Below, one piece after another: positions 34 to 57,862 of a stretch of DNA of 64,000 nucleotides. The notes beneath the pieces were generated by a model that had not been told where the DNA came from, ran no database searches, and worked only from the letters and a program-made list of their open reading frames with translations. Each line of letters opens with the position of its first letter. Within the stretch, counting starts at the first letter, position 1. Source of the DNA: Apoda limacodes (Eukaryota > Arthropoda > Insecta > Lepidoptera > Limacodidae); assembly GCA_946406115.1 (NCBI GenBank), contig OX291556.1:12120501-12184500 (forward strand). The letters are read 5' to 3'. A program made the position numbers and the translations under genes.

Positions 34-3000
34 CTAAAATCCTATACAAATATTAAGAATCAGTACTCTTAGAACCATCGGATCGAAAGTGAAATAAGGT
101 ATGATGATCTGTGAAAAGAAATGTCAAAATTCTAAATAAACAAAAAAAAACTATCGCTACGAACATTTAACGTTCACTTTAATTTTTTGTTAGTTTCAGT
201 ATTGTTTTTATATTTTGTGATTTCGAAATGTGTGCAATCCCAATTTCAATCCAATCGCAATTTGGTTTAGGAGTACCGATGGAGATCGAGTTTAAGCTTG
301 CCACGAAATTGGATAAAAACTGGATTGCGATTGAAACTGATATCAGTTGTAGGCCTCCAGGGGTTGTCACAAAATTGAAAACCTTTTTTGGAACAAATTA
401 GTACTTAGTAACTAAAACGATTCAAAAGTAATTTTAAGAATCTTATTTGAATTAAAAAAATTTTTTTTTATATTTTATAGTTTTTTTACTAAAATCTGAA
501 AAATAGCTTGTATGATGAGTAACGATTGCGAGATTTTTTTTTAAGAAAAATACCTACCTTTTAACTTTTTAATCGCGAGTCAAGAGTATGTACTTATATT
601 AGAAAACTTCAACTAGAACCGTAGAACATTTTACCTTATAATTGCGTCGAATGCTCTCCAGAAGTTTATCGATGATTGTAATAGGGACCTGGAAATTATA
701 AATTATTTATGTATTTTTTTTAATCCGCACTGTACGTGATCATTTTTAAAACCTTAAGGTGTGAGGGTGAATTCCCTGGCGATGGTATGCCAATGCTCTT
801 CGAAACAGTGTGGAGAGTGTTCTGGAATTGTGGGATCCCAGTAAATGGTTTTTTCTTAGCGGCTTGTAGGGTTGAACCGGACCAAGTTTTCCCGTCTCCA
901 GTCAGATACCTTGGACAGAGTGGTCTCAAACTTTCCTCCACATCGAAACGTGGGATGCTTGCACGGCCCGTGTAAAAAGCGTCTCCAGTACTGTCATCTG
1001 CATAGCAATGTATGTTGATGTACAACATGTCATTGATATGCAGTAGAAACAGCGTAGGAGGTAGCACAAACCCGTGCAGGGCAAAAGCCTTAGTGTCCAT
1101 GCTATCAGAGCAACTACTGTCAACTATGGCTTGAATGCGTCTGCCGGACAAATAATTGCCACCCATTTGCACAAATGGCAACTTCGAAAGAAGACCCCGG
1201 TGCCAGACCCGATCGAACGCCTTCTCTATGTCCAGGCTTCATGCCAATGCCGTCCCCTGACTCTCAATGGCTAGTGCCCATCGAAGTATGAGAAACACAA
1301 GAAGGTCACCAGTCGAGCGACCGTGGCAAAAGCAATATTGACGGTAGCTGATCATTCATTCATTCGCAGTCTTTCTAAAATTAACGAGAATAAAAAATAG
1401 ATTTTTTAAGGTTCTTACCGAGAGTGCTTTTCCGACGGCTATACCAAATTGGTCTAGGTTTGATGCCGTACTGCCATCTGTAGTAAATGCATTAATAGTT
1501 TTACAAATATCATGATATAAGTAATTTTTTTTTGTCAGCTTGTAGATGTAGGTACAGCTAATAGTCCAATCAAATTAGAAAATAAAAAAAACATTAATTG
1601 GTAGAATTTTAAATTTTGATGTACATGTTCATTAAGACCTCCCGTTGTGCTTACTAAAAGCCCCCACGATACCTGTTGCGCGCGCGCCGCCATCTTGGAA
1701 AAAAGGTACCCTTTTTCAGTTTTTTGCTTATATCTCGGCAATACTTATTAATATTAAATTTCCTATAAAAAAGCTAAGAAATATTCTTTATGTATCTCTA
1801 ATACTTTAGCTGTAATCCGACATTGAACATATTTTTTTCTATATTTTTGCTATCGATATACAGTTTTGTTTCTGTTTACTCCTAAAATGTTCATACGTAT
1901 CTTCAAAAACTTATTCCATGACACTACCTAGAGATAGAAAAACCGACAGAGATGATGAGAAAGAGAGAAAGAGAGAGAAGGGGTAAGATAAATCAGGCCT
2001 AGATGTATGATGTGACATGATGTGTATAGCAGGGCGGAGTCCGCTTGGTCAGTAAGAATAGCCAATAGAACAAAGACAAAGTTCTCGACAGACTGATAAA
2101 CAAACTCAATTTTAACATTATGACTGCTACTAACTACGCCGTTAATGACAAACATACGCTGGACATACTCTACATAGCGTTCCTACAGAACAGAAGCCTA
2201 CATTTGCGCTCCATAGTAGTACTGGATGAACTTTGATCTAACAATCTCTTGGTTATTATGTCCCGACCCAGGCTTACAAAGTCACTGCGACAGACTGTGA
2301 TAGACTGGGACAAATTCAAGAAAGCTCTTAAAAAATCAGCTCACCACAGCTAGATCTCATTCCTGTTCTCAATAGATCTCTGATATTGATGTGGTCATCA
2401 AATCTGTCACCCAACAGTCACTCGCAAGCAACTATTAGCAAGTGCATAAAATAGAAACCAGTTAAGAGCGATCTCATTGTATGTGGAACAGCTTATATTA
2501 ATAGCTTAAAAATCGTTAAGTAGGATTTATTGAACGCTGTCGCCACGTCGAAAAATGGAGATCCTATAGGTATAAATGTGCTCCGTGACATCTGTGATGC
2601 CGTGCTCCTATTCTGTTGCCCAAAATCGAAGCAAAATCCGTCTAGCTAGAATACAGAAACCTAGCCTTACGTTATGTAAAAGCGCTACGTCAAGTATTTC
2701 CAGCCTATGACTATTGGTAGTATTACAGTACTATAAACGGTGCTTGGTAACTATATACATACAAAGTCTCGTAAATCGTAATAAGTTGCCTAAGTCTTTA
2801 TGAGAATTGAGGCACACCTACGAGACGACGATCAGCTGATGGCTGGTCATGGCTTTTCGGTATTGATAGGCAGTCGCGGCTATTTCAAGGTTCTTATACA
2901 CACCAAGTGGCCCCAAAACACATTCCGACCCAGCCATACACAACATGTCACATAATGCAATTGCTTCTTTCCTCCTGTCCTTTTTTCTCTCTTTCTCACC

Positions 3001-5877
3001 CTCTCATCTCTCTTTTTCTCTTTCTCTCTTAGTAGGCGAAATAAATCTAAAAAATGTATTCGAACCATTTTGGTGTAAACATAAAACAAATGGTATATCG
3101 GCAGCAAAAAAAACAATCATTTTCTTCTTTAACGGCGCATTACAGCTCAAATACTAGAGATACAATAGTAAAATGTTTTAGCTTTTTTATAGGATATCTA
3201 ATAATCTATCGTTTTTCAACCACTTTTTTTCCGTATCAGCAATAATTGCTGAGATATAAGCAAAAATCTAAAAAAGGGTACCTATTTTCCAAGAGGGCGG
3301 CGCGAGCGCAACAGCTATCGATGGGGACTTTTAGTATGTTCAACCGGAGGTCTTAATGAACTACTACACTAAAATTCAAAACTCTACTAATTAATGTTTT
3401 TTAGCCTAAAAATGTATCTAATTTGACTGTACTATAAGCATTCTTTAAAATTTAAATATTCAACTTTCCGTAGTCGTATACTCGTCACTAGGTTGGTTTT
3501 TTGTTTCTTTTTAGTGCCAGTTTCATCTTTTATGTACTAACTTAAATCTTTCTTGTAATTATTTTTCTACTATTTAAACACTTTGTGCGATTAAAGATAA
3601 TACTTTCGTATAATATGAAATTTGAAAGTACCTACAAACAAAAGACTAGACTAGATAGTTAGACATTTTAACATGTTGGTAAATTACCTTTTTCCTTTGG
3701 AGTGTCGTCAAGAATAAACTTTGCTCCTCTCAGAAAACCATTCGTGACCTGTGAATAAAGTTGAGCGGTGTTAATATTATGAACTAGCTGACCGTGCGAA
3801 CGTTGTTTCTCGTTTTAGAGCAACTGGCGCGCTACCTATTGTGAAAAGGTTTACCCTTAGTACGTGAGTCTGAATCGCACAAGACCAGTTTTTTCTTTCT
3901 TAGAAATCTTCCCCGGCGTGAGCACAACAACTCATCAAAATTTTACTACAATCGGTTTACCCTTAGTGCACTAGTCCAACTCGCACTATACCATTTTTAA
4001 CTTATTACACACTACATAAAAACCTTGACATAACAAAAACGAACACAACAATATAAGAATTATCTAATTTGGTGCAGTCGTTCGGAAGTAACAGCATGAC
4101 CAAGGAAAACAGAGATTAATTTTTATATAATTATATATAGATAGGAATGAGCCATAAAAAAACAAAATGTAAGCCCTCAATTTAGTCTAAAAACGATTTG
4201 CTTGGTGATATTTCACATTCGTTTTGATATCAATAAAATGACACATAAAAGAAACTGCATCAGTTCTACTGTCAAAGTTTTGTTATGTGAACAAATCAGT
4301 ATTGAGGAGATCTATACTATCCCTTCTGAGTCGCTTGTGAGCGTAAGCCGTGCCCCAATAGTGGGGACGTATGAAGGCTGGCGAGAATCGAGAGAATACT
4401 ATCCATGACCGCCTTCATAGCTAAGCAAATCGCAAAGATGAAATGGGCGGGGCATAGCTCGAAGAACTGATTTTCAATAGGAAAAAGATTCTTGAATGAC
4501 GGCGTTGTACTGGAAAATGCAGCTTAGGAGGACATAGCTCTACGCTAGATGAATAGATGACCATGTGAAGGTCAGTCAGGCAGTCAGGCAGGGAGCCGTT
4601 GGTATTTACAGGCGACACAGAACCGCATGCTTAGTTAAGTGCCGTAAGATCAGGTATATCTCCAGAAGTAGAAGTCTGATACAATGACGATGGTGATGGT
4701 GAATTAACCATTGACGACCTGCGAAACTAATCCATTAAGTGGTCTATAGAAACAGCTGGTTATATATCTCCTAAGACCAATGAATCTTTTCATAAGCCTT
4801 AATTCTAGATTCTACGTGTTCGCCTTTTTTTACCAGACACCGCATATGATAAATAATATAATTATATCAGAATTTGTTATTCTCCATTAACTTACACTTA
4901 AGATGGCAGAAACCAATGCTGAGTTTCTTTTAGATCTTGAATTTGTATCTAAAGTGTTGTCAATCTCCTCTGCATCAGCGTGCATCCCGGGAATGAGACC
5001 ATCAAGTCTCATTGCCCGGTTTGGACCCACTGTCGGTATTTGCACTTGTGACACTTGCTGTAATGAATTCCAATAGTGGTTTTCAACATTTTCATACTTT
5101 ACTTCCTGTGAATGATAAAAATACCTAAACTTAGTGCATACCATACAATGCTGGGTGTCCAAAAGATTCAAGGAAGTCTTTTTAGATATAAGAAATCGTC
5201 GAAGTCGAACATTTACAAAAAAATATTAATTCTGTCACTCCATATTTGGGACTTTATTAAAATTGATTGGAAAACAAAAAATGATATTCTCTTGATTCTT
5301 ATTTCATAAAATAAATATAAATATGACCAAGAAAATTTTCTAATTTCATAGTTCTAAGTAAATATTTAAATTTTATACCGACAAAAAACCGAAGAGATTT
5401 TCAACATGCGGTCACGTGCTACCGCATATCGTACGTGGGACTGTATGTCTTTGTATGCTTTTATAGTGAAATATGAATGAAACGGCACGCTTTTGCTAAG
5501 GTATGCCATAGCCTTAAACTTAGAATAATATAATTTTTAAGGTAAAAGTTAAAACACACCGTCTTTAAAATCACACATTTAAAAAAATGTTTATTTAGTC
5601 TCTAAAAAATAATTGTAGCAAAAGATGTCAAATTTGAACTTATTAAAAATAGAGACAGGTAGAGCACAAAGTAGCAAACGCCAATTTTAACTCATTTACA
5701 ACACTAGATTTCATTTCCGATAGGTGCAACTGATAGCATTAGATTTATAGGAAATTCAACATTTTTTTATCTTAAATCGAATATAACAAATTATTAAAAA
5801 AGTCAAAAATAAATAAAACTTACCGCCCAAATTTGTGCAATATGTGATACAATAAGCATAATTATAACTCTTTTCAT
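34..5877 (-). CDS. Predicted six-exon gene for a small secreted protein, family not recognised
   Basis: Seen in sequence: exons at 5824-5877, 4896-5105, 3688-3748, 1419-1477, 635-688 and 37-108 (stop 34-36) join into one open frame of about 170 codons. Introns start GTAAGT, GTAAGT, GTAATT, GTAAGA, GTAAAA and end in TTCACAG, TTCACAG, CTACAG, TTCCAG, TCACAG. Exon phases agree at every junction, including the one split codon between exons 3 and 4. Exon 1 begins at an ATG and encodes 18 residues (MKRVIIMLIV...QIWA) that look like a signal peptide. Exon 2 (70 residues) is hydrophilic and carries an SRSKR basic site before NSALVSAILS. Exons 3-5 are amphipathic (VTNGFLRGAK..., ...FGIAVGKALS, VPITIIDKLLESIRRNYK). 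The last exon is hydrophobic and least certain; the gene might continue beyond the window. Introns 2, 3 and 4 contain transposon insertions. Inference: a secreted or processed peptide precursor; function unknown. Confidence 0.6.
722..1357 (-). mobile_element. Decayed LINE fragment (RT domain), copy A of the CR1/Jockey-type family
   Basis: The minus strand reads as the same reverse transcriptase found at 8316-9596 and 33355-34536. Recognisable stretches are GRSTGDLLVF, a D/EKAFDRVWHRG block, LHINDML and the YADD catalytic motif. It lacks about 20 bases in the SYGVPEG region. It also lacks a block of several hundred bases between the NTP-side region (near 810) and the HRQGIHSHT-like end (near 780). 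Several frameshifts make it a pseudogene. It has no intact 3' tail. It lies inside intron 4 of the secreted-protein gene, on the same strand as that gene. Confidence 0.85.
1563..3440. mobile_element. Long-terminal-inverted-repeat (foldback-like) DNA element
   Basis: The stretches at about 1563-2060 and 2885-3440 are inverted copies of each other. Both show, in mirrored order, the block TTCATTAAGACCTCC, a GC-rich patch with GCGCGCCGCC-like sequence, GGTACCCTTTTT, TATATCTC, TCCTATAAAAAAGCTAA, an AGAGAGAAAGAG-type purine run and TGTGACATG. The arms are therefore about 500 bases each and visibly diverged. The 0.8-kb middle contains no transposase. Its plus strand has LINE-endonuclease-like remains (WDKFKKALKKS near 2305-2340). 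The element sits in intron 3 of the secreted-protein gene. Exact termini and a target duplication could not be fixed. Confidence 0.75.
3785..4142 (+). mobile_element. RTE-like LINE/SINE 3' tail remnant
   Basis: The stretch begins TAGCTGACCGTGCGAACGTT and ends in AACAGAGATTAATTTTTATATAATTA followed by TATATATAGATAG, the type of ending I associate with RTE-type non-LTR elements in Lepidoptera. Inside, a motif around GTTTACCCTTAGT...CACTA occurs twice (3849-3890 and 3955-3997). No coding sequence survives. It lies in intron 2 of the secreted-protein gene, in the opposite orientation. Confidence 0.5.
4310..4700 (+). mobile_element. Degenerate RTE-type LINE end
   Basis: A GCCGTGCCCCAATAGTGGGG motif (4348-4367), shared with the SINE at 59355-59625, is followed by IAKQIAKMKWAGHSS in the plus frame near 4425-4465. 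The latter matches the conserved IAKLKWQWAGHIARR-type C-terminus of RTE reverse transcriptases. The stretch ends in a TGACGATGGTGATGGTGA-type tail near 4683, as RTE copies often do. It is heavily frameshifted. Confidence 0.5.
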
Positions 5878-7990: not shown

Positions 7991-8315
7991 AATCCATATA
8001 TTGCAGAATATATTGAAAGAAAACTGCAACTTTAATTGAGTACCTAAACAGTTATTTTACTTTTGAACTTTGTTCTTTATAAATATTACAATATATAGAA
8101 TTTAATATATGAAACTTTAAAGCTTTATGCAGAGAGAAATTGAGAAAATATAAATATTGTTTTTGCTTTGGTTAATATACGCTGCGGGTGACGTGTTAAA
8201 CGCAAAGCGAAACTTATGCTGAAAAGTCTAAGCTCAGTTACTAATTGTTATAAAATGTCAGTCTACACTTATCTCATTGTTAATAATATTTTAATACTTT
8301 ACATTTATTTATACT

Positions 8316-9596
8316 GGTGACCTTCAAGTGTATCTCACACACCGATGGGCACTAGCAATTGAGAGTCAGGGGGAGGCATTGGCATGTAGCCTGGACATAG
8401 CGAAGGCGTTCGATCGGGTCTGGCACCGGGGTCTTCTATCGAAGTTGCCATCTTACGGAGTGCCCGAGGGTTTGTGCAAATGGGTGGCTAGCTTTTTGTC
8501 CGGCAGACGCATACGAACCGTAGTTGACGGTAGTTTCTCTGATAGCATGGACATTAATGCTGGTGTCCCGCAAGGCTCTGTGCTGTCTCCTACGCTGTTT
8601 CTACTGCATATCAATGACATGTTGGACATCAACAACATACATTGCTATGCAGATGACAGTACTGGAGACGCTTTTTACACGGGTCGTGCAAACATCCCTC
8701 GTTCCGTTGTGGAGGAAAACCGCGGAGAACTTGTGTCTCAAATCGAGACCACACTGTCCCAGGTCTCTGACTGGGGACGGGTAAACTTGGTCCGATTCAA
8801 CCCTACAAAGACACAAGTGTACGCGTTCACCGCTAAGAAAACTCCATTCACTGTAGTCCCACAATTTCAGAACACTCCCCTCTCCATCTCCAAGAGCATT
8901 GGGATCCTTGGTGTTGACATCTCAAGCGATGTTCAGTTCCGAGATTATTTACAAGATAAAGTGAAGCTTGCGTCCAAAAAACTTGGTGTACTCAACAGAG
9001 CGAAGCAGTACTTCACGTCGGGGCAAAGGTTGTTACTTTACAAGTCGCAAGTTCGGCCCCATATGGAGTACTGCTGCCATCTCTGGGCAGGTGCACCCGG
9101 ATACCAGCTTGGCCCTTTTGACTCGGTTCAACGACGGGCTGTGAGAATTGTCGACGATTTCAAACTCACTTGCGGTATCGAGCCCTTAAGTCTGAGGAGA
9201 GACTTTGTCTCACTGTGTGTGTTTTACCGCTTGTACAATGGGTTGTGTTCTGAGGAATTGTTCGAAATAATGCCCATGGCTTCTTTCTACCATCGCACCG
9301 CTCGCCATCGGCAGGGAATTCATTCTCACACTTTAGAACCTAAATAGTCGCGTACAGTGCCGTTTCAGAGAAACTTCCTCCCGCGAACGCTGAAGTGGTG
9401 GAATGAGCTCCCTGCCAAGGTTTTCTGCAAGGACTACAGTATAGAGTTATTCAAGAAAGAAATTATTAGATTTCTGAAGGGTCGGCAACGCGCAAGTGAT
9501 ACTCCTGGTGTTGCAAGCGTCCATAGTCTACGGTGACCGCTTGCCATCAGGCGGACCGTAAGCTTGTTTGTCACCTTAGTGGTATAAAAAAAAAAA
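8316..9596 (+). mobile_element. 5'-truncated CR1/Jockey-type LINE, copy B, nearly intact
   Basis: The copy starts inside the RT domain at CTGGTGACCTTC and runs through the RT C-terminus to a 3' end with TCAGGCGGACCGTAAGC, CACCTTAGTGGTATAAAA and a poly-A run (9587-9596). After the stop at 9345 the frame would continue as RNFLPRT...WWNELP...EIIRFLKGRQRASDT...VHSLR before the 3' UTR. The same 3' end recurs as fragments at 23165, 32750, 37205, 46140, 46565, 50035 and 54360. Confidence 0.9.
8328..9347 (+). pseudogene. Reverse transcriptase, partial (LINE copy B)
   Basis: An open frame of 339 codons without an own ATG, because the element is 5'-truncated. Visible RT blocks, in order: DIAKAFDRVWHRG (first catalytic Asp), SYGVPEGLCKWVASFLSGRR, GVPQGSVLSPTLFLLHINDM, YADDSTGDAFYTG (catalytic YADD), then the thumb/C-terminal region VRFNPTKTQVYAFT, KLGVLNRAKQYF, MEYCCHLWAGAPGYQL and GLCSEELFEIMP. 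It ends at TAG at 9345-9347. Copy C has TGG (Trp) at that place, so this is one G-to-A nonsense change in an otherwise readable frame. Confidence 0.85.
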
Positions 9597-9759: not shown

Positions 9760-12700
9760 AGCTCTTTCTTATTTCATATACGTTCTTTCATGACTTATAC
9801 CATTTTATTATTCCTACACTACTCGAATTATGTATACATCATCTGCTTATATCACGAATATTTCCTTGGCTTCCATTGATATCCTTCGGTAACGTCCTTC
9901 TTTAGCATACTTCTTTTATTACGGATTTGCAAATACATGACACAGTAGTGTCTGACAACAATCCTGCGTTCCAAATGCTTTTATTCAAAATCTCTTACAC
10001 TGCTCCTTACAGCTCAAGATAAAGTATTTACTACGATTCGCTAGTCTTTCTACTTGCTTTTAACCTATCGAGAGGTCGTAACCTCTACATATTTCCCACC
10101 GATCGACCAGAAAATGATAGCAACTCATTGCGTATACTTTTCTATTCGCTACCTATAAACTACCCATCGAAATGTAAACTACTGTACCCTACTGAGTTTA
10201 ACTTAATACCGAGGCACTTAGACACGTAATGCGAAACAATATGCAAAATGGTATATTAACTAATTAAGGTTCCCTTTTGGATTTTAGTTAATTTTCCTCC
10301 GAATAAACCCTGGTGAAAATCCGTGAGACACGGCACTACCTACCTCCCTATCGAACACTAACTGTTTAAATGTCGGGTAAACTACCTTCAAATTAATTAA
10401 TTAATCAGGCCAACACAAAACAGTTTCATACTTTTAACTTTTGAAGCCAAACATCAAAACAATATTACACAATATAAAACCCTAATACCCTAAGTTAATT
10501 AAATTGTTAATCAATTCATTATTGCAAAACAAAAGCTGTTTGATAACAATCAAACCTGTGTCGTACTTTAAACATATTTTAGTTTTTGACATATAATATC
10601 TCTCGTCCTCTTAACTTTCATTTACATTTATTGCATTTAATCTAAATTAAAAAACCGTAATAAATCTTAATAAATCATTAGCGGCAGCCAGTGATCATAT
10701 GATTTTAAATTCAAATCGCTTTTTGAACCTACCCGTATCGGACTAATATTAATCCCTAATTCAGCATCTCCTTTTTCTGAATAACAAAGGACACAAAAAA
10801 TTAATAAATATTCTACATACAATGGTCCTTCATACTAGTTAAAACTTTTTCATTAATACATCAAAATTAAAAACTTAATTAAGATCTCATTTGAACTAAA
10901 CTTAGTATAGCGCATTACCATGCATGAAGTGCAATACCTACCTAACTTACTTTTACAGCTTGCCATAAATCAAAAATTATTACTTTCGGCTTGCATTAGC
11001 ATTTTCTCGTATAAACCTCATACCTTATATTCATTTCACTTCTAATTAACTAATAATCAACCCTACTAAATACCTATAACTCTTTATTAACTGCTAAAAT
11101 ATCATTCACTATGAGAATATTTACTTTACATTAATAACCTAGTATTCACCCTAAGAATCTTAAACCTCCCTTACATTAATTATTATCAAACATAGTTTTC
11201 TTTTTCTTTAAGAAATGCAATGCATATCCTATTGCGCATATTTTCAAATCGTCAAAACTTTACTTAATACATTCATAAGAAAAATCAAGAAAATCACTCC
11301 ATTTACACTTTCCATTCTATTTACATCCTGTCTTTTCCCTCGCTAACTAATACCAAACTATATTAACGACAATAATAATTCTTTTAACCTACCTGATTCA
11401 TACAATATACAAAATAAAACCATTACTTTATTTGTTAAAGTCATATGTCATATTCGCATTTTAAAATCAACGAACGTCGCGAAAATTAATTACTTACTAT
11501 GACTTCGTATTCCTACTCACACTTAACTCGTGATAGAGTATTAATAAAATAATAACGAAAAAACTTATAATAATAATATAATAACGAAGAAAAACTTTTA
11601 AAATTCTAAGTTTATTTATTACACATCGCACTTGACCCTTTTTCGCACGTCCATTCATTCCTCCTTAAGTTGAGTCACGCATAACCCTGATTCGTTTTGA
11701 TTCGAGTACGACCTATAAATATTTTTTTCATTTGCTAACCTTTAACTCTTATCCTATCCCACTGAAAATTTTAAACTAATTTATCACGGCTCACTTGGAC
11801 CTAATCCTACTTATTTTGGATTACTCTTGATCCAGATCACGCTTGACTCGGATCAACTTTAACCAAAATCTCACTCGATCATAATCGCTATTAAAACCCT
11901 TCACATAATTTCCATGATTCACTCTTGGCTCTTTCCTAATCTACTACCAATTATATTGTTATCCTACGTATCCCTATACATTATAACACTGTTCATCCTT
12001 AACGATGTTTTATGCAGTTATATTTTTATAAGGCGCATAAAATCAGATACGGAACCCTATATTTACTCACTTCGATTCTTGCTTCATAATATCTTTTTAT
12101 TTATTTTTATTATAAAATTCATACTCTATATATGGAATCTCACCTATTACTAAATAACTGTTCTTGGAGAACCCTATCTTAAGATTCCCTAACTTCTTAT
12201 TATACACTAGTTAAGCAATAATGTACCCTACTGAACCTTACTATCGACTAACCTCAGTCTATCGTAGCCCTACCTAATTAAAATACAATCTCTCTTCTGA
12301 ATAAGCTCGCTTGATGTAGTCCTACACACATTTAACAATAATATATTATATACGAAACCATATCCTACTTCGGAACATTCGGTCATTTATACACAAAATC
12401 TAACATAGTAAAACATATCAATCTTTTGAACAAATTAACCTACACATATTTACGCTTCCACGTTTCCCTTACCAATCCTACTACTAATAAACTACTTACT
12501 ACTACCATAAACCTATTAACTGCCTACGAACTTCCACCAAACAAAGAATACCAATCACCAGCGTTTACATTTGAACAAGGAGTACTACATATGGCCTAAT
12601 TCCTTTCTATTTCTCCCTCGATTTCCTTACTTCTATATTACCTTCACTACACTTTAAATTCATTCCATCCTACCTTTAATTTCCTATTTAAGACCATTAT

Positions 12701-13075
12701 TCCAATCCTTTCCTTTAACACTTTTGTCAACAACATTACTCTGCTAAATAAAAAAAAAAAACCTTGTTATTCTACGTTACCACGACAACGAAAATAACAT
12801 AGCTCGCTTATCCAATCCTTAACTTAGAAATCCCTTATTTGCTATTTCGATTTAAATAACATATCGCCATATACTCTATACTTACCATATTCTATCAATT
12901 AATCTTATGCGATCTTATCACATAAAAACGTTTCGTTATCAATTGATACGAACCCAGTTTGACCTTCAAACTTTTAGACTTTCGAGAAATAACCTACTTC
13001 CCTTTGATGTTTCCCGCTAAATTGTACCTAAACCTACCTATAACTAAAGAATCTATTAGTCCAAATAAAAGTTTA
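9760..13075. other. 3.3-kb non-coding stretch with strong strand asymmetry (few G, many C on plus)
   Basis: Direct counts: 12661-12720 has 18 C and 1 G; 12481-12540 has 19 C and 2 G; 11161-11220 has 11 C and 3 G. The rest looks similar by eye. The longest frame (11914-12153) is only 79 codons and hydrophobic, without homology I recognise. No tandem period, LTR or transposon end was found. The asymmetry starts shortly after LINE copy B and stops near 13075. Confidence 0.6.
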
Positions 13076-13420
13076 AGGTGATTTGCTGGGCAGAGTTTTC
13101 ATACAGAATTCTTTTGCTATAATCTCGGAAGTTTGCACAACTTCACGTTTGATATTACGATTAAAAAAAGGACAAAAAATCAAGAGCTCACCGTTCTTGG
13201 TTGTATAAAATATCATTCAGCCATTTTTTTTTTATTGAATTAGATTGATTATGATTGCTTCTATGTTTAGATTACTTGAATTTTCTTATTCTTGAATGTA
13301 TATTTTTTAATAAATTGATCACTATTGTAAATATTTATGCTCTATTACGACTACTGGTGCACCCTACACTGCATGATTTTTTTTTATAGAAAAAAATATT
13401 TTACCAGTTCATATTTGTGG
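13075..13420. other. Intergenic, nothing recognised
   Basis: AT-rich DNA between the skewed stretch and the piggyBac relic. The G content is back to normal from about 13075. Confidence 0.6.
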
Positions 13421-13534
13421 TCTAGAACACGGGAAGTGCAGGTAAAATAAAAAAAAAATAATAGTATTGGAGCAAAATGATTTTTTGATTTAGTTCCATA
13501 TGTGGCACAATATGCATTGACCTACCTAAATTTG

Positions 13535-14600
13535 CTAATCTAACTAAAGGTGAAACAGACGGAAGCAGTTTTTGTCCTTGTTTTAACAAAGTTCGACTCA
13601 CACAACAAACGATTTTCCTTTGCAGCCCGGATTCTTGCATCGCTGGCGCTTCTGTCCCCACATAGAAAAGTGCTCGACTCCATCACTCCTGGCGTCACGA
13701 GTAGGAAGAATCGCTACATTGGCTCTCATTCTTTTTGTCTCTATCAGATAATTACTTGCAGAAGGCGGCCGGCGTTTTTTCTTATTCATTGATAAACCAC
13801 AAATACAAAGGCTCTTTGCCACTTCTTGAAATCTTTCAACTTCAGCGGCATAGCTCTTTGTCGCATCTCCCCAAATCTTCTGTATTGCAACCAAGTATTT
13901 ATGATGGCTATGTCGAGGAAATGGTAAAACAGTCTCAAATACCACTTCTTTGCCCTCATCTTTATTTTGTTCTTTCCCAGGAATGAGTCGAGCAAGTCAA
14001 CTCCGTTGCGTACAATTTGAGGGCAGTCGATATCTATATATATCTTTTGTTACAAAACCTCCTCACTTTATGCCTACGCTCTTTTCCAACAAAAGATGAA
14101 GACAATATCTATCTAGTTTATTGTCATACCACAATACTGTGACGATATCTGTGCCATTTACATTGCCTACCAATTCTTCTGAATATCCTTTTTCCTTCTT
14201 GCTACTTCTTGCAATGATGGTATTTGTATAGATTTTCCTAGTCGTTCTTTGTTCACGGTTCCCATAGAATATTTTCCTTCATTGGCAAGATACGTAATCA
14301 ATTCAAGGCATGTGTAGTAGTTATCAAAGAATAACTTGTAATTTCTATCCCTGGGAATAGACCTTGCAAGCCGAATAACAATGTTGGCAATTGCGCCTAA
14401 ATCAGGCTCATTAGGAAGCCTCAGATCTGGGTTATTCTCCATCCCAGAGTATAATTCGAAGTCGTACGCAAATCCTCGATCATCACAGAGCACTAACAGT
14501 TAATACCCCCATTTATGAGGCTTATTAGGTAGATATTGGCTCAGCATGTTAGGCCTTCTTCTTCTTCATCCGTATCGCTAAACGGATTGTTTTTTTTTGT
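13535..14600 (-). pseudogene. piggyBac-family transposase, truncated and frameshifted
   Basis: Known family: DDE/D transposase of cut-and-paste elements inserting at TTAA. The minus strand shows, in several frames: acidic NPFSDTDEEEEG (near 14570) joined directly to LSQYLPNKPHKWGY; VLCDDRGFAYDFELYSG (first catalytic Asp block); NYKLFFDNYYTCLELITYL (second Asp); SIQIPSLQEVARRKKD; VLWYDNK; CPQIVRNGVDLLDSFLG (third Asp) with KKWYLRLFYHFLDIAIINTW. A C-terminal Cys-rich end follows, QRCKNPGCKGKSFV...NKDKNCFRLFH. A large N-terminal part is deleted, and frameshifts and stops occur near 14165, 14060 and 13790. No terminal repeats were identified. Confidence 0.85.
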
Positions 14601-32880: not shown

Positions 32881-33354
32881 AGGTTTTCTGTGTATTTTGT
32901 GTTGGCTAAATAAAATGTATTTCATTCTTCTTTCTTTCTTATATGTTAGTAACATTTCTGACTAACTCTTTAGGTATAATTGACGTTCTGCTGTTTTGCT
33001 TTGTAACAAGAAAGACCGATTACTTGTCTGATACTTACATACATATAATGTTTAAGTAGCCACAATTTTATTACACGTTATAATAATTTCTACTACTTTG
33101 TGGCTATATACACTACACTTAATCACAAAACTGACATTGAAAAGCTATTCTCTCATTCGCGATGAGCTTAAAACAATGAATTTTATCGCTAACTGCTCAT
33201 TTCATCACTACACCATTATTATCCATTTAATTTTAATACTTATACATACTAGTAAATTCAACTTACCTACTAATCACTTTTTACGAACAATATCTAATAC
33301 TTATTGAGTAACCTACCTTACCTGGTGTCTATTTACCTACAACCACACGACTTT

Positions 33355-34536
33355 AACATGGTACTAGCCACTGAGAGTCAGGGGGAGGAGTTGGCATGTA
33401 GCCTAGACATAGCGAAGGCGTATGATCGGGTCTGGCACCGGGGTCTTCTATCGAAGTTGCCATCTTACGGAGTGCCCGAGGGTTTGTGCAAATGGGTGGC
33501 TAGCTTTTTGTCCGGCAGACGCATACGAGCCGTAGTTGACGGTAGTTGCTCTGATAGTATGGACATTAATGCTGGTGTCCCGCAAGGCTCTGTGCTGTCT
33601 CCTACGCTGTTTCTACTGCACATCAATGATATGTTGGAGATCAACAACATACATTGCTATGCAGATGACAGTACTGGAGACGCTTATTACACGGGCCGTG
33701 CAAGCATCCCTCGTTCTGTTGTGGAGGAAAAACGTGAAGAACTTGTGTCTCAAATCGAGATCGGTCTGTCCAAGGTCTCTGACTGGGGACTGGAAAACTT
33801 GGTCCGATTCAACCCTTTAAAGACACAAGTCTGCGCGTTCACTGCTAAGAAAACCCCATTCACTGTAGTCCCACAATTCCAGAACACTCCCCTCTCTATC
33901 TCCAAGAGCATTGGGATCCTTGGTGTTCACATCTCCAGCGATGTTCAGTTCCGAGATCACTTGCTAGACAAGGTAAAGCTGGCGTCCAAAAAACTTTGTT
34001 GTACTCAACAGAGCGAAGCAGTACTTCACGTCGGGGCAAAGGCTGCTGCTTTACAAGTCGCAAGTCCAGCCCCATATGGAGTACTGCTGCCATCTCTGGG
34101 CGGGTGCAACCGGATACCAGCTTGGCCCTTTTGACTCGGTTCAACGATGGGCTGTGAGAATTGTCGACGATCCCAAACTCACTTGCGGTATCGAGCCCCT
34201 AAGTCTGAGGAGAGACTTTGCCTCCCTGTGTGTTCTACCGCTTGTACAATGGGTTGTGTTCTGAGGAATTGTTCGAAATGATGCCCACGGCTACTTTATA
34301 CCATCGCACCGCTCGCCATCGGCAGGGAATTCATTCTCACACTTTAGAACCGAAATGGTCGCGTACAGTGCGGTTTCAGAGAAACTTCCTCCCGCGAACA
34401 ATTAGGTTGTGGAATGAGGTTCCCTGCCAAGGTTTTCTCTAAGGACTACAGTATGAGGTTCTTCGAAAAAGAAGTTATTAGATTTCTGAAGGGTCGTAGG
34501 CTTGTTTGCCACCTTAGTGGTATAAAAAAAAAAAAA
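33355..34536 (+). mobile_element. 5'-truncated CR1/Jockey-type LINE, copy C
   Basis: Matches copy B from its RT domain to the poly-A (34525-34536). Over 8401-8520 against 33413-33532 I count 3 differences in 120 bases. The RT blocks DIAKAYDRVWHRG, GVPQGSVLSPTLFLLHINDM and YADDSTGDAYYTG are intact. One extra base near 33995 shifts the frame (KKLCCTQQ instead of KKLGVLNR), so the frame opened at 33304 ends wrongly at 34131. About 75 bases of the 3' region (GCAACGCGC...GGACCGTA in copy B) are deleted at 34497. Upstream sequence differs from copies A and B, as expected for independent 5' truncation. Confidence 0.9.
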
Positions 34537-40122: not shown

Positions 40123-41580
40123 TTATTTATCTAAAGCTGACAATAAAGTGTATTTAATATCTGTGTAGTCCAAAGCTCCATGCATACTTCCTTCCTTTCC
40201 AAGACCAGACTCTTTGATTCCTCCAAAAGCAGCTTCTGTGGCTGACAAAATACCATCATTAATAGCAACCATACCGAACTCTAAATTACGAGACATTCTA
40301 AATGCTTGGCCAAGGTCCTTTGTGAATACATAAGAAGCCAGTCCACTTCTTGTGCTGTTTGAAATCTTAAGCGCTTCTGCTTCACTTTTTACTTTTAGAC
40401 ATATTGCAACAGGGCCAAAGATTTCTTCGGTATATATCTGCATTTCAGGTTTCACGTTTACAATAAGTGTCGGTTCATAAAATTTGTCTCCAATATTTTT
40501 TTTTATTTTTCCACCAAGCAATACCTTTGCTCCTTTTGATACAGCATCATTTACGAGACCTGAAACTTTGTCTACAAGTGCCTTGTTAATTAGAGGGCCG
40601 CATGTCACTCCTTCTTTTGTACCTTCTCCTAAAATACACTTTGTCTGAATTTTCTTCATAAAGCTGTTGACAAAGTCATCAAAAACATCTTCGTGGATTA
40701 AAAATCTATTAGCACATACACAGGACTGACCATTGTTTCTGAATTTTGCAAGTATGGCTTGATCTACTGCATGATCTATATCAGCACTAGGAAATACTAT
40801 AAATGGGGCATTGCCTCCTAACTCGAGCGATACCCGCTTAATTCCGGAAGCGGCCATGCTATAAAGAATTTTTCCTACACCTGTAGAACCTGTAAAGGAA
40901 ATACACGCAACTCTTGGATCTGTACACATCATTTTTCCAACGGCCATACCGTTCTTCCTATCTGAAGTAACAACATTGATAACACCCCGGGGTATACCAG
41001 CTTGATTTGCTAGTTCAACAGCAGCTAATGCTGATAATGGTGTATCTTCTGAAGGTTTAATTACGCAAGTGCATCCCGCTGCCACCAGGGCCGCTACTTT
41101 TCTAGTTATCATAGCAGAAGGAAAGTTCCATGGAGTGATGATAGAAACAACGCCAACTGGTTGCCTCGTCAAAATAATTTGTTTGTTGGGCCACGGACTT
41201 TGTAAAACTTCACCATTGATATGACGGGCAGTCTCCGCAAAATATTCCAAAAATGAGTTACCATACGAAATTTCAGCCCTAGATTCTGCTAAAGTTTTTC
41301 CTGACTCTATCGTGATAATTCTGGCTAGATGTTCGCTGTTTTCTTGACATAAATTAAACCATTTTCTCAAAATATAAGAGCGTTCTTTAGCAGTTGTCTC
41401 TTTCCATTTTTGGAATGCATCACTGGCGGCCTGTAAAGCCTTTTCTACATCAGGTGTATCCATATCAGGTACTTCGGCAATCACGGAATCGTTAGCTGGA
41501 TTCGTCACTGGAAACACTGCACCACTTTTTGCTTCCACCCATTCTCCATTGACAAAGGCTTCGGTTTTTAAAAGATGCAT
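40123..41580 (-). CDS. Succinate-semialdehyde dehydrogenase-type aldehyde dehydrogenase
   Basis: Known role: NAD(P)-dependent oxidation of succinic semialdehyde to succinate, the last step of the GABA shunt, normally mitochondrial. The 485-residue frame is intact from ATG to TAA. Visible landmarks: ITPWNFP (Asn152), IKPSEDTP (Lys175, cofactor), FTGSTGVG (231-236, Rossmann turn), LELGGNAPF (general base Glu253), GQSCVCANR (nucleophile Cys287, with Cys289 as in the redox-switch pair of animal SSADH), EEIFGP (Glu386) and FGGIKESGLGKEG near the C-terminus. FRNNGQSCVCANRF and the last motif fit SSADH better than other ALDHs. There are no introns, and the N-terminus (MHLLKTEAFVNGEW) lacks an obvious mitochondrial presequence, unlike the roughly 50-residue extension of animal mitochondrial SSADH. 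It could be a retrocopy, a cytosolic paralogue, or miss a 5' exon. Codon use looks ordinary for the AT-rich surroundings. Confidence 0.93.
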   Translation of the reverse strand: MHLLKTEAFVNGEWVEAKSGAVFPVTNPANDSVIAEVPDMDTPDVEKALQAASDAFQKWKETTAKERSYILRKWFNLCQENSEHLARIITIESGKTLAESRAEISYGNSFLEYFAETARHINGEVLQSPWPNKQIILTRQPVGVVSIITPWNFPSAMITRKVAALVAAGCTCVIKPSEDTPLSALAAVELANQAGIPRGVINVVTSDRKNGMAVGKMMCTDPRVACISFTGSTGVGKILYSMAASGIKRVSLELGGNAPFIVFPSADIDHAVDQAILAKFRNNGQSCVCANRFLIHEDVFDDFVNSFMKKIQTKCILGEGTKEGVTCGPLINKALVDKVSGLVNDAVSKGAKVLLGGKIKKNIGDKFYEPTLIVNVKPEMQIYTEEIFGPVAICLKVKSEAEALKISNSTRSGLASYVFTKDLGQAFRMSRNLEFGMVAINDGILSATEAAFGGIKESGLGKEGSMHGALDYTDIKYTLLSALDK

Positions 41581-43761: not shown

Positions 43762-44950
43762 TTAACTAATATTTATTATTAGTTCCTGTACTTCTATATT
43801 ATCGAATGCCACATGAATTTCCCAATCCGACGCTATAATGTTTTGGTTTCTTCTAACAATTTTTTCCCAGTGTTGGGCAGTTACTTTCGCACATGAATTT
43901 TTTAATAAATCTAACATCTTGTTTGCCGTAAATTGGGAGTGGGTATTGTTTTGAGCGGCGTGTCCTTTGATTTGTGCCCATATTAGTTCTATAGCATTGT
44001 ACTGGCAATGATACGGCGAAAGTCGAAGAACCTAATGACCACATTTGGCAGCTATTTCGTCGGTAATATATCTTTTAGGAAGCCTTTTTTTGATTTTAAA
44101 AATTCCACTAATTGTACTTTTAATAAAGAATTATCCACATTTTCGCCATGACGTTGGAGCCAGTCAATTATCTCGTTTTTTTTTTTAATTATTTTTAATT
44201 GAACTGCAATCAATTACTATCAATTTGTCTGGAGATATATGTAGCGTTATCCATAATAATTAACGACGGTTCTTCCAGAGATTGCACTCTTCTTTAAACC
44301 ATCCTCCGTAAATCTCCGCGTTCATTTTGTCGTAGTAGTCCACTGTTTTCTTGGATTTAAAGGCCAGTAAAGCATCTGACACGAATCCTTTCGTAGACCC
44401 TGCATGGTATATGATAAGGCGTTCACTGTTTCCCGTTGGCACTGAACTAGTGGAAGTGTCGGTGTTGTCAGTCCAGTGCTTAGATACTGTGTGGTTTGCA
44501 TTTAACCAAGTCTCGTCAGTGAAAATAACATTTGACCGATCTGATATCTTTCTGACTTCGCAGCGAGCCATAGCAACGTCGTGACGCTCCATCAATATTT
44601 TACGTTTATCCAATTTTTTATAAGAAAATCCAATTTCTTTCAAAACCAAGCTTTAATGACGATTTTTGGCCGTGGAACAAACCACATTCACGTAAAGAAA
44701 CAACAAGTTTTTTGAGTATTGGAATTTCTTTGCGCAAGTAATAGCCATATATATGACGGCGAATAGCGTCAGTGTCGAAGTTGTCAACCGATGTCACACG
44801 ACGTGGTTGGCGTTTTTTCTTCGGAGTACGAAGCTTATTTTCCTGCATGCCGCTTGTACCGTAAGCTTCGGTAGTAATTTTTGAAACAATAGGTCCACTA
44901 ATTCCTAATGCAGCCGCAACACGCTCTCGCACTTGCGACAGTGGTAAAAG
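43762..44950 (-). pseudogene. Tc1/mariner-like (DDE_3) transposase, frameshifted
   Basis: Known role: cut-and-paste DNA transposition. The minus strand reads MRERVAAALGISGPIVSKI, then PKKKRQPRRVTSVDNFDTDA, RRHIYGYYLRKEIPILKKLV and FSYKKLDKRKILMERHDVA. VIFTDETWLNANHTVSKHW carries the first catalytic Asp. Then follow SLVIMDNATYIS (second acidic residue, near 44240) and AIELIWAQIKGHAAQNN (catalytic Glu, near 43985), and the chain ends WEKIVRRNQNIIASDWEIHV, AFDNIEV (stop 43762-43764). At least three frame changes (near 44640, 44260 and 44040) inactivate it. The length without them, about 390 residues, is near normal. It lies between two direct repeats rather than visible terminal inverted repeats. 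Confidence 0.85.
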
Positions 44951-44957
44951 CGGGCCA

Positions 44958-45745
44958 CCACATTGATACGTCTGGCGCGGTAAGTATCGTGATGGATGAC
45001 CGCCTAGTGGAAAAAATATTGAGCGATTTGTGCCATGTCTAGAGTCCTTATGCTCCTGAAAACTCTGCCAGTTGAGTAGCCACTGGCCACTAGGTTGAAA
45101 CGTTCGCTAGACCAGCTTAGGGTACTGACCCGTAAATTAAAACATTAATAAAATTTACTCAGTTTTCATACATTAATAATGACCTAATATATTTACCCTG
45201 AATTGACATGGATCACGACCTACCAAGCACGAAATTAATTTATTCTCTATTAGAACGGGGTTTTCTGGAAGAAATCGCTAAACAGCGATAAGACCGCCTA
45301 AATTGTTACCTAGTTTAAATATTTACTTTTGTTAATTACTTTTTAAATACTGGTGATCAATAAAGAGTTATCTATCTATCGCATTTAACATAAAAAGGAC
45401 TAGAAAATGTGTCGGGAAAATTAATTTTCTTATCTAAGTTGTCATGACTTCGTTCTTACTTACAGTAAGTACTTAAATAACAGAGGCTTTGAAACGTTAA
45501 GCTGTGTCTCTATTTATTGTAATCCATTGTTTATCCACGCCGAGCTGACGGTATGCCCGAGCTTATAATTACTTTTGTGTTTTAATCCCTTTAACCAAGA
45601 TTGTGAGCTAAGTTGTCATTCTGAATATTTGAATAAGCAAATCCAATAAAGGAATTTGAGCTATGAAAGTGTTACAATTATTTTAATTATTTGCAGGTAA
45701 TTCCGTGTCTTACACAAATGTGTGAAAGTTGGTTAAAAGGAAGTT
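44958..45745 (+). repeat. Right copy of the direct repeat, with insertions
   Basis: Carries ATACGTCTGGCGCGGTAAGT, GATGACCGCCTAGTGG, CCACTGGCCACTAGGTTGAA, GACCCGTAAATTAAAACATT, GGGAAAATTAATTTTCTTAT, TCATGACTTCGTTCTTACTT and GGTTAAAAGGAAGTTAGC, in the order of 42920-43330. It is lengthened by a LINE 3' end (45230-45390) and by sequence at about 45478-45695. Confidence 0.75.
45230..45390 (+). mobile_element. LINE 3' end inserted in the repeat
   Basis: GAAGAAATCGCTAAACAGCG, ATAAGACCGCCTAAATTGTT and CAATAAAGAGTTATCTATCT form the 3' UTR and AATAAA/short-repeat end of a LINE family widespread in Lepidoptera. No coding part is left. The TCTATCTATC tail marks the insertion point. Confidence 0.65.
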
Positions 45746-56934: not shown

Positions 56935-57862
56935 AAAAATTATCCATGGAAGTTTGCTGAACTTAGTCCATATTCTTTTTTAGCATTTAATTTGTTAAAG
57001 TTGTCAGTAACCCTACAAATAAATGAATTCTGTCTATAATTTGTGTTTACCATTTCCAACGAAAAAATAGGACTTTGCCTGCGCAATCTAGATGGAACAT
57101 ATAGATTCAGTTTACTCAGTAGTTCAGGAGCATTAATTAGGCTCTGGGCAATTTTCATAAGTAAAATGTTATCTGCGATTTCTCGACGTATGTATAATGG
57201 AAGGCGATGGTATTTTTTGCAAGCTAGAATATAGTCCGCTGGGGTATAAGTTCGATAATTGAGGTTCCTAAGAAATTTCCTTTGTATTGCCTCAATTCTT
57301 GTTATGTAAGTATTATATTTAGGATTCCAGATTTGAAAGAAATATTCTAACTTGCTGCTTACATATGTACAAAATAATATTTTAAAAGTTTTTATATTCT
57401 CAAATTATCTTCTTGTTCGCATAATAAATCCTAGTGATTTTTATGCTTTCTTTATTATATTATTAATATGTTCATCAAAAATTAATTTAGAATCATGTAT
57501 TACATCTAAGTCTTTCACAGATTGTTCTCTTAGCAACTTATAGTTTTTTAGGTAATACTTACTAAGTATTGGATGTTTGCGTCGGGTAAATGATAAGACA
57601 GAGCATTTAGCAGAGTTAAGTACTAATTTGTTAGCATCACAATACTCATCAAGTCTTACAAGATCTTCTTGCAGAGAAGAAATATCTGCCATTGTTGTAA
57701 TAGACTTGAAGATTTTCATGTCATCAGCAAAAATAAGTACTTTATCATTTTTAAAGCAAACATCGATATCAGAAACAAAGATTAAAAAGAGGAGAGGACC
57801 CAAAAGAGAACCCTGGGGTATACCACTTGGAACTTTAACCCAGCTAGATAATTGTTAGCTAC
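56935..57862 (-). pseudogene. Non-LTR reverse transcriptase (second CR1/Jockey-group lineage), 5'-truncated
   Basis: The minus strand starts near WVKVPSGIPQGSLLGPLLFL and continues with IFVSDIDVCFKNDKVLIFAD and DMKIF (catalytic FADD), SLQEDLVRLDEYCDANKLVL, NSAKCSVLSFTRRK and DEHINNIIKKA (120-codon frame at 57441-57803). In another frame it goes on with RTRRKFENIKTFKILFCTYV, LEYFFQIWNPKYNTYI, RIEAIQRKFLRNLNYRTYTP, RREIADNILLMKIAQ and VPSRLRRQSPIFSLEMVNTN. It ends with a stop near 56940. One frameshift near 57445 is obvious. It is distinct from the 8.3-kb family. Confidence 0.85.

What the first reader, a model, noticed from the sequence alone, without database searches (positions are those of the whole stretch)
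34..5877. Unannotated six-exon gene for a putative secreted peptide, with introns full of transposons
Six short minus-strand exons join through five GT-AG introns with matching phases, from a signal-peptide ATG exon (5824-5877) to a stop at 34-36. That consistency is unlikely by chance in such AT-rich DNA. Exon 2 contains a basic SRSKR site before NSALVSAILS, which could be a convertase cleavage site. I recognise no family. It is invisible to single-ORF searches because the longest exon is only 70 codons.
Basis: partly seen in the sequence, partly recalled or inferred. Interest (0 to 1): 0.85.

Follow-up and report, generated by a model that had tools for sequence, protein, structure and literature searches.

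The report
Probable orphan gene, secreted insect protein
A stretch of what is probably moth or butterfly DNA very likely holds a small split gene for a secreted protein that resembled nothing in the databases searched; such orphan genes are common and its job is unknown.

Summary
The six-exon chain is present as described: 513 nt, 170 aa, no internal stop, five GT-AG introns. It exceeds chance: with a gene-finder written here, 0 of 3000 shuffles reached its score, and 1 of 300 did earlier at lax settings. Removing exons 1-4 costs 8-23 bits each, exon 5 costs 0-4 and exon 6 nothing, so the stated 3' end is unproven. Exon 1 is the only signal-peptide-like one of 71 comparable ATG exons (my own criterion). 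Old transposon debris in introns 3 and 4 hints that the frame was kept by selection. RSKR separates an acidic part from a basic part, but a similar motif arises in 3% of shuffles: cleavage is plausible, not shown.

No relative was found in Pfam, NCBIfam, PDB or 5.8 billion proteins, a set that does hold many Lepidoptera. Best reading: a real, fast-evolving or lineage-restricted gene for a secreted protein of unknown role. Transcripts, orthologs and the neighbouring DNA could not be tested (the genome search did not complete). A real but ordinary kind of find.

The parts
5824..5877 (-). exon 1: start codon and signal-peptide-like MKRVIIMLIVSHIAQIWA; in-frame stop 11 codons upstream of the ATG
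   Evidence: donor 10.9 bits, top 0.12%; only signal-peptide-like one of 71 ATG exons with donor >=6 bits. Its coding composition alone is not distinctive (P 0.28 among open frames)
4896..5105 (-). exon 2: 70 codons, acidic part ending in the basic site RSKR (residues 75-78), then NSALVSAILS
   Evidence: acceptor top 0.07%, donor top 2.26%; a 70-codon open frame occurs at 0.76% of positions and 1% of those are as protein-like
3688..3748 (-). exon 3: VTNGFLRGAKFILDDTPKEK, ends at phase 1
   Evidence: acceptor top 0.73%, donor top 1.43%; composition P 0.041; loss 9.1-12.3 bits if removed
1419..1477 (-). exon 4: (D)GSTASNLDQFGIAVGKALS
   Evidence: acceptor top 2.92%, donor top 1.86%; composition P 0.017; loss 8.4-13.1 bits if removed
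635..688 (-). exon 5: VPITIIDKLLESIRRNYK; may instead be the last exon, reading on to a stop at 599
   Evidence: acceptor top 0.25%, donor top 4.42%; composition not distinctive (P 0.57); loss 0-3.8 bits
34..108 (-). exon 6 as proposed (unproven): IIIPYFTFDPMVLRVLILNICIGF and stop
   Evidence: good acceptor, top 0.86%, but composition not protein-like (P 0.78) and no loss if removed
1555..3429 (.). in intron 3: transposon-like element with roughly 480-base inverted arms; ends read by eye as CAG..CTG flanked by TA (Tc1/mariner-like is a recalled label)
   Evidence: inverted arms 1557-2038 / 2924-3439 at 69.6% identity; arm distance K2P 0.364; ends printed
720..1313 (-). in intron 4: fragment of a non-LTR reverse transcriptase
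   Evidence: blastn to 8313-8905 (78.6%) and 33360-33917 (77.1%); RVT_1 at E 7.9e-06, 26.1 bits, under the Pfam cut-off of 29.6

Best explanation
This is a real protein-coding gene of a lepidopteran, with at least four and probably five coding exons in this window, for a small secreted protein that is fast-evolving or restricted to its lineage. Supported here: spliced frame, signal-peptide-like start, coding composition of exons 2-4. Inferred: the signal peptide directs the protein out of the cell; a furin-type convertase may cut after RSKR, parting an acidic N-terminal piece (pI 5.1) from a basic, helix-prone C-terminal piece (pI 9.2, residues 79 to about 146), which would act outside the cell, most simply by binding lipid, membrane or a partner protein. 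Odds: real gene about 0.85, secreted about 0.75, convertase processing about 0.35, this C-terminal action about 0.25.
For: Chain and frame. 0 of 3000 shuffles reach its score. With transposon splice sites masked, the gene-finder recovers the E1 donor, E2, E3, E4 and the E5 acceptor at the claimed bases. Splice sites in the top 0.07-4.42%. E2, E3 and E4 more protein-like than 99%, 96% and 98% of open frames of equal length in unmasked window DNA. E1 the only signal-peptide-like one of 71. Neutral simulation: at 0.1-0.2 substitutions per site, 1.2% to 0.01% of copies keep the frame and all ten splice sites; the intron-4 fragment has its own branch of about 0.11 (my arithmetic), the intron-3 arms about 0.18 each if identical at insertion. 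RSKR in 3.3% of residue shuffles, and the charge split. Lepidopteran host: best hits of the neighbouring aldehyde dehydrogenase are Lepidoptera.
Against: No homolog in any search. The earlier shuffle set had 1 of 300 above the claimed score at lax penalties. The gene-finder prefers the inner ATG at 5859 (Met-7) to 5877 and, unmasked, joins transposon stretches. Synonymous codon use is not significantly like that of the neighbouring dehydrogenase gene (11% of random draws as good). Composition of E1, E5 and E6 is not distinctive. The low-confidence exon-2 model (pLDDT 59, pTM 0.24) runs a helix through RSKR, against an exposed cleavage site. A proline (residue 130) sits in the most amphipathic stretch. 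Splice and protein frequencies in my gene-finder are recalled values, and the signal-peptide criterion was set after seeing exon 1. The selection argument assumes that the gene predates the insertions and that the arms were once identical.
Confidence: 0.6

Rival explanations
1. A chance chain: short open stretches between good-looking splice sites in AT-rich, transposon-rich DNA, picked out by eye.
For: No homolog. Open stretches of 18-24 codons occur at 19-28% of positions. E5 and E6 add little or nothing. One of 300 shuffles reached the score at penalties 9 and 11.
Against: 0 of 3000 shuffles. The segment's best chain ranks second (penalty 9) and third (penalty 13) of 22 segment-strands; those above it carry the dehydrogenase gene and, at penalty 13, a reverse-transcriptase ORF. 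E1 and E2 meet at sites in the top 0.12% and 0.07%.
Confidence: 0.12
2. A real gene with a different 3' half: E1-E4 are right, but E5 is terminal (stop at 599) or the gene continues beyond the window start with other exons, and may belong to a family that would be recognised from its missing part.
For: E6 costs nothing to remove, E5 0-3.8 bits; at penalty 13 with transposons masked, the best chain ends in E5 at 599. E6 composition is poor. Only 33 bases lie beyond the proposed stop, so no poly(A) signal could be sought. The protein search admits only candidates 0.55-1.75 times the query's length, so a wrong length would hide relatives.
Against: E6 has a good acceptor, the right phase and a stop.
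Confidence: 0.4
3. A recently dead gene (pseudogene) or an untranslated RNA gene with a leftover frame.
For: Transposons have invaded two introns; no expression data.
Against: Frame and ten splice sites are intact although the transposon pieces are diverged; unconstrained copies seldom survive so. No Rfam match in the window.
Confidence: 0.08
4. A known kind of secreted lepidopteran antimicrobial precursor (moricin, cecropin, gloverin, attacin or lebocin type), too diverged for the searches.
For: Signal peptide, possible RSKR processing, basic helix-prone C-terminal part.
Against: No Pfam family even at E 10; no similar protein in a set rich in Lepidoptera; net charge of residues 79-146 is only +1.8.
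Confidence: 0.08

Closest known systems
Lineage-restricted orphan genes of Lepidoptera, such as lushu of Plutella xylostella (PMC11290247; abstract and section list seen)
   Same: No recognisable relative in the searches made here; a lepidopteran gene that similarity searches would miss
   Different: lushu is reported as a sperm protein with a knockout phenotype; here there is no expression, tissue or phenotype, and the species is unknown
Insect male accessory-gland (seminal fluid) proteins, described as hotspots of new, fast-diverging genes (PMC9768217; listing and start of abstract only)
   Same: Small, secreted, without detectable homologs
   Different: No tissue evidence here; the resemblance is of kind, not of sequence
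Insect antimicrobial peptide precursors (PMC7924397, listing and start of abstract only; the lepidopteran family names are recalled)
   Same: Signal peptide, possible basic cleavage site, basic helix-prone C-terminal part
   Different: No sequence match at E 10 in Pfam; weak net charge; split over five or six exons

Membership tests
spliced protein-coding gene | open joined frame with GT-AG introns beyond chance | tested here: met
   1 of 300 at lax settings
spliced protein-coding gene | spliced transcript | not testable with these tools
   no reads or transcripts of this species on hand
spliced protein-coding gene | codon use like a known gene of the same genome | tested here: inconclusive
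   one reference gene only; 11% of random synonymous draws score as well
secreted protein | N-terminal signal peptide | tested here: met
   by a simple criterion of mine (basic residue, then a hydrophobic 9-mer), set after seeing the exon: 1 of 71 exons; SignalP not available
convertase-processed precursor | R-X-K/R-R site between pro-part and product | tested here: inconclusive
   RSKR at 75-78; such a motif in 3.3% of shuffles; low-confidence model puts it inside a helix
orphan gene | no detectable relative outside its lineage | tested here: met
   within their sensitivity: the protein search needs shared 5-residue words and similar length
orphan gene | presence or absence in close relatives known | not testable with these tools
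   no insect genomes on hand; the genome search was unanswered 12 times
lepidopteran antimicrobial precursors (moricin, cecropin, gloverin, attacin, lebocin; names recalled) | match to a family profile | tested here: not met
   0 Pfam families at E up to 10

The most novel reading that the evidence does not exclude
A new family of secreted, convertase-processed peptide precursors confined to one lepidopteran lineage, without cysteines in exons 1-5, with a product built from two helix-prone segments each encoded by very short exons, and kept by selection while its introns filled with transposons.
Probability: 0.2. Interest if true: 0.55.

Novelty: new member of a known kind. Interest (0 to 1): 0.33.

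Why it matters
Genes made of exons of 18-70 codons with no relatives fall through both similarity searches and single-frame searches, so small secreted proteins of insects are probably under-counted. If expressed, this would be one more candidate for a lineage-specific reproductive, immune or signalling protein, with junctions that reads could test at once. The kind itself is well known.

Tried and rejected
Homology: Pfam at E 10, 0 families; NCBIfam at E 10, 0; PDB sequences, one chance-level match, kinetochore subunit MCM21, E 0.97; 5.8 billion proteins, 47 candidates sharing words, none at E up to 1, and residues 25-124 alone, 8 candidates, none at E up to 10. Viral contigs: 6 pattern stretches, none confirmed. 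Bacterial and archaeal genomes: 30 pattern stretches, none confirmed. A tandem paralog in the window was sought with tblastn; apart from the exons themselves the best hit was E 0.58.

Structure: exon 2 alone gave pLDDT 59.3, pTM 0.24, too weak for a fold search, so none was run. The joined protein was not handed to the structure tool, because its stated rule admits only proteins read straight from the DNA.

RNA reading: no Rfam match and no tRNA in the window. Papers: four searches, on missed small-exon genes in Lepidoptera, gave three unrelated papers. No search of print for this very gene was possible, as it has no name.

Full report
What is there. On the minus strand six stretches join into an open frame of 513 nt (170 aa and a stop): 5877-5824, 5105-4896, 3748-3688, 1477-1419, 688-635, 108-34. 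All five introns are GT-AG (718, 1147, 2210, 730 and 526 bases), and an in-frame stop lies 11 codons upstream of the ATG. My first script had two exon ends one base off; one search is the correct version.

Is it chance? I wrote a small gene-finder with splice-site and amino-acid frequencies recalled from general knowledge and an arbitrary penalty per exon. The claimed chain scored 56.3, 44.3, 32.3 and 20.3 bits at penalties 9, 11, 13 and 15. Against 300 dinucleotide shuffles, 1 reached it at penalties 9 and 11, and 0 at 13 and 15. Against 1500 further dinucleotide and 1500 trinucleotide shuffles, 0 reached it at penalties 9, 11 and 13. Among 22 segment-strands of the window (the last segment is 4 kb), the best chain of this segment ranks second at penalty 9 and third at penalty 13; those above it carry the dehydrogenase gene and, at penalty 13, a reverse-transcriptase ORF.

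Which exons hold? The best chain in the untouched segment is not the claimed one: it scores 55.7 at penalty 11 and 43.7 at 13 and draws in stretches of the intron-3 element and of the reverse-transcriptase fragment. With splice sites inside those two elements masked, the best chain uses the E1 donor, E2, E3, E4 and the E5 acceptor at exactly the claimed bases, starting at the inner ATG (5859) and ending either in E5 at 599 or in a tiny exon at 495-475. Removing E1, E2, E3 or E4 costs 8.4-22.9 bits, E5 0-3.8, E6 nothing. Composition agrees: E2, E3 and E4 are more protein-like than 99%, 96% and 98% of open frames of equal length in the rest of the window; E1, E5 and E6 are not distinctive (P 0.28, 0.57, 0.78). 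Synonymous codon use is not significantly like that of the one host gene available (11% of random draws as good). So E1-E4 are well supported, E5 is likely, and E6 is open.

Protein. Exon 1 is the only one of 71 ATG exons with a donor of 6 bits or more that passes a simple signal-peptide criterion; I set that criterion after seeing the exon. RSKR at 75-78 is the only R-X-K/R-R site; 3.3% of shuffles of residues 19-170 have one. Residues 19-78 have pI 5.1, residues 79-146 pI 9.2 with net charge +1.8, and the one cysteine lies in doubtful exon 6. Amphipathic windows lie at 81-103 and, more strongly, at 122-153, the latter with a proline at 130. AlphaFold2 on exon 2 alone, without an alignment, gave pLDDT 59.3 and pTM 0.24, with a helix running through RSKR. 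It is too weak to weigh, but if anything it speaks against an exposed site.

Age of the introns. Intron 3 is mostly one element with inverted arms at K2P distance 0.364; intron 4 holds a reverse-transcriptase fragment at 0.131 and 0.151 from two other copies in the window, which are 0.063 from each other. If the arms were identical at insertion, each has changed by about 0.18; the branch of the intron-4 copy is about 0.11 (my arithmetic), part of which may predate insertion. In a substitution-only simulation, 1.2%, 0.12% and 0.013% of unconstrained copies keep the frame and the ten splice sites at 0.10, 0.15 and 0.20 changes per site. This suggests constraint, provided the gene is older than the insertions, which was not tested.

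Relatives. None was found: Pfam, NCBIfam, PDB, two protein-database searches, viral contigs, prokaryote genomes. As a control, the intact aldehyde dehydrogenase at 40123-41580 found many Lepidoptera in the same protein set, best Epargyreus clarus at 77% and Manduca sexta at 75% (8000 of the candidates scored, 120 listed). So the host is a lepidopteran whose own proteins seem absent from the set, and the set does cover the order. The protein search needs shared 5-residue words and a length of 0.55-1.75 times the query, so diverged relatives or a wrong gene length could hide homologs. The window's own genome could not be searched: 12 requests did not complete (listed under Tried and rejected).

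Verdict. Most likely a real gene for a secreted, fast-evolving or lineage-restricted protein of unknown role. Processing at RSKR and an extracellular action of a helix-prone C-terminal part are inferences. Comparable things in print: an orphan gene of Plutella xylostella with a male reproductive role (PMC11290247, abstract and section list seen), and accessory-gland proteins as hotspots of new genes (PMC9768217, start of abstract in a listing). It is a new member of a known kind, of moderate interest until expression or orthologs are shown.

Noticed in passing
40123-41580 (-): Intact single-exon stretch for an aldehyde dehydrogenase (Aldedh E 1.1e-160), lepidopteran succinate/glutarate-semialdehyde dehydrogenase type; best database identity only 77%, so the species has no close relative in the set. 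The N-terminal leader seen in the 501-506 aa relatives is missing from this frame.
   Followed up: partly
10001-14000: Strong GC skew, -0.41 at 10001-12000 and -0.28 at 12001-14000; the other 2-kb bins lie between about -0.11 and +0.08. Cause not examined.
   Followed up: no
8295-9347 (+), 33298-34134 (+), 720-1238 (-): Three copies of one non-LTR reverse transcriptase; the first and third match RVT_1 (the third under the cut-off); the first two differ by K2P 0.063.
   Followed up: partly
14167-14499 (-): Transposase fragment, DDE_Tnp_1_7, E 1.4e-14; piggyBac type is a recalled label.
   Followed up: no
57441-57854 (-): A further reverse-transcriptase fragment, RVT_1, E 1.7e-09.
   Followed up: no
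3848-3897 and 3954-4003: A 50-base direct repeat (76% alike, spacing 106) inside intron 2.
   Followed up: no
43762-45106 (-): Open frames that read like Tc1/mariner transposase pieces (recalled impression); the one piece tested, 44618-45106, matched no Pfam family at E 0.1.
   Followed up: no
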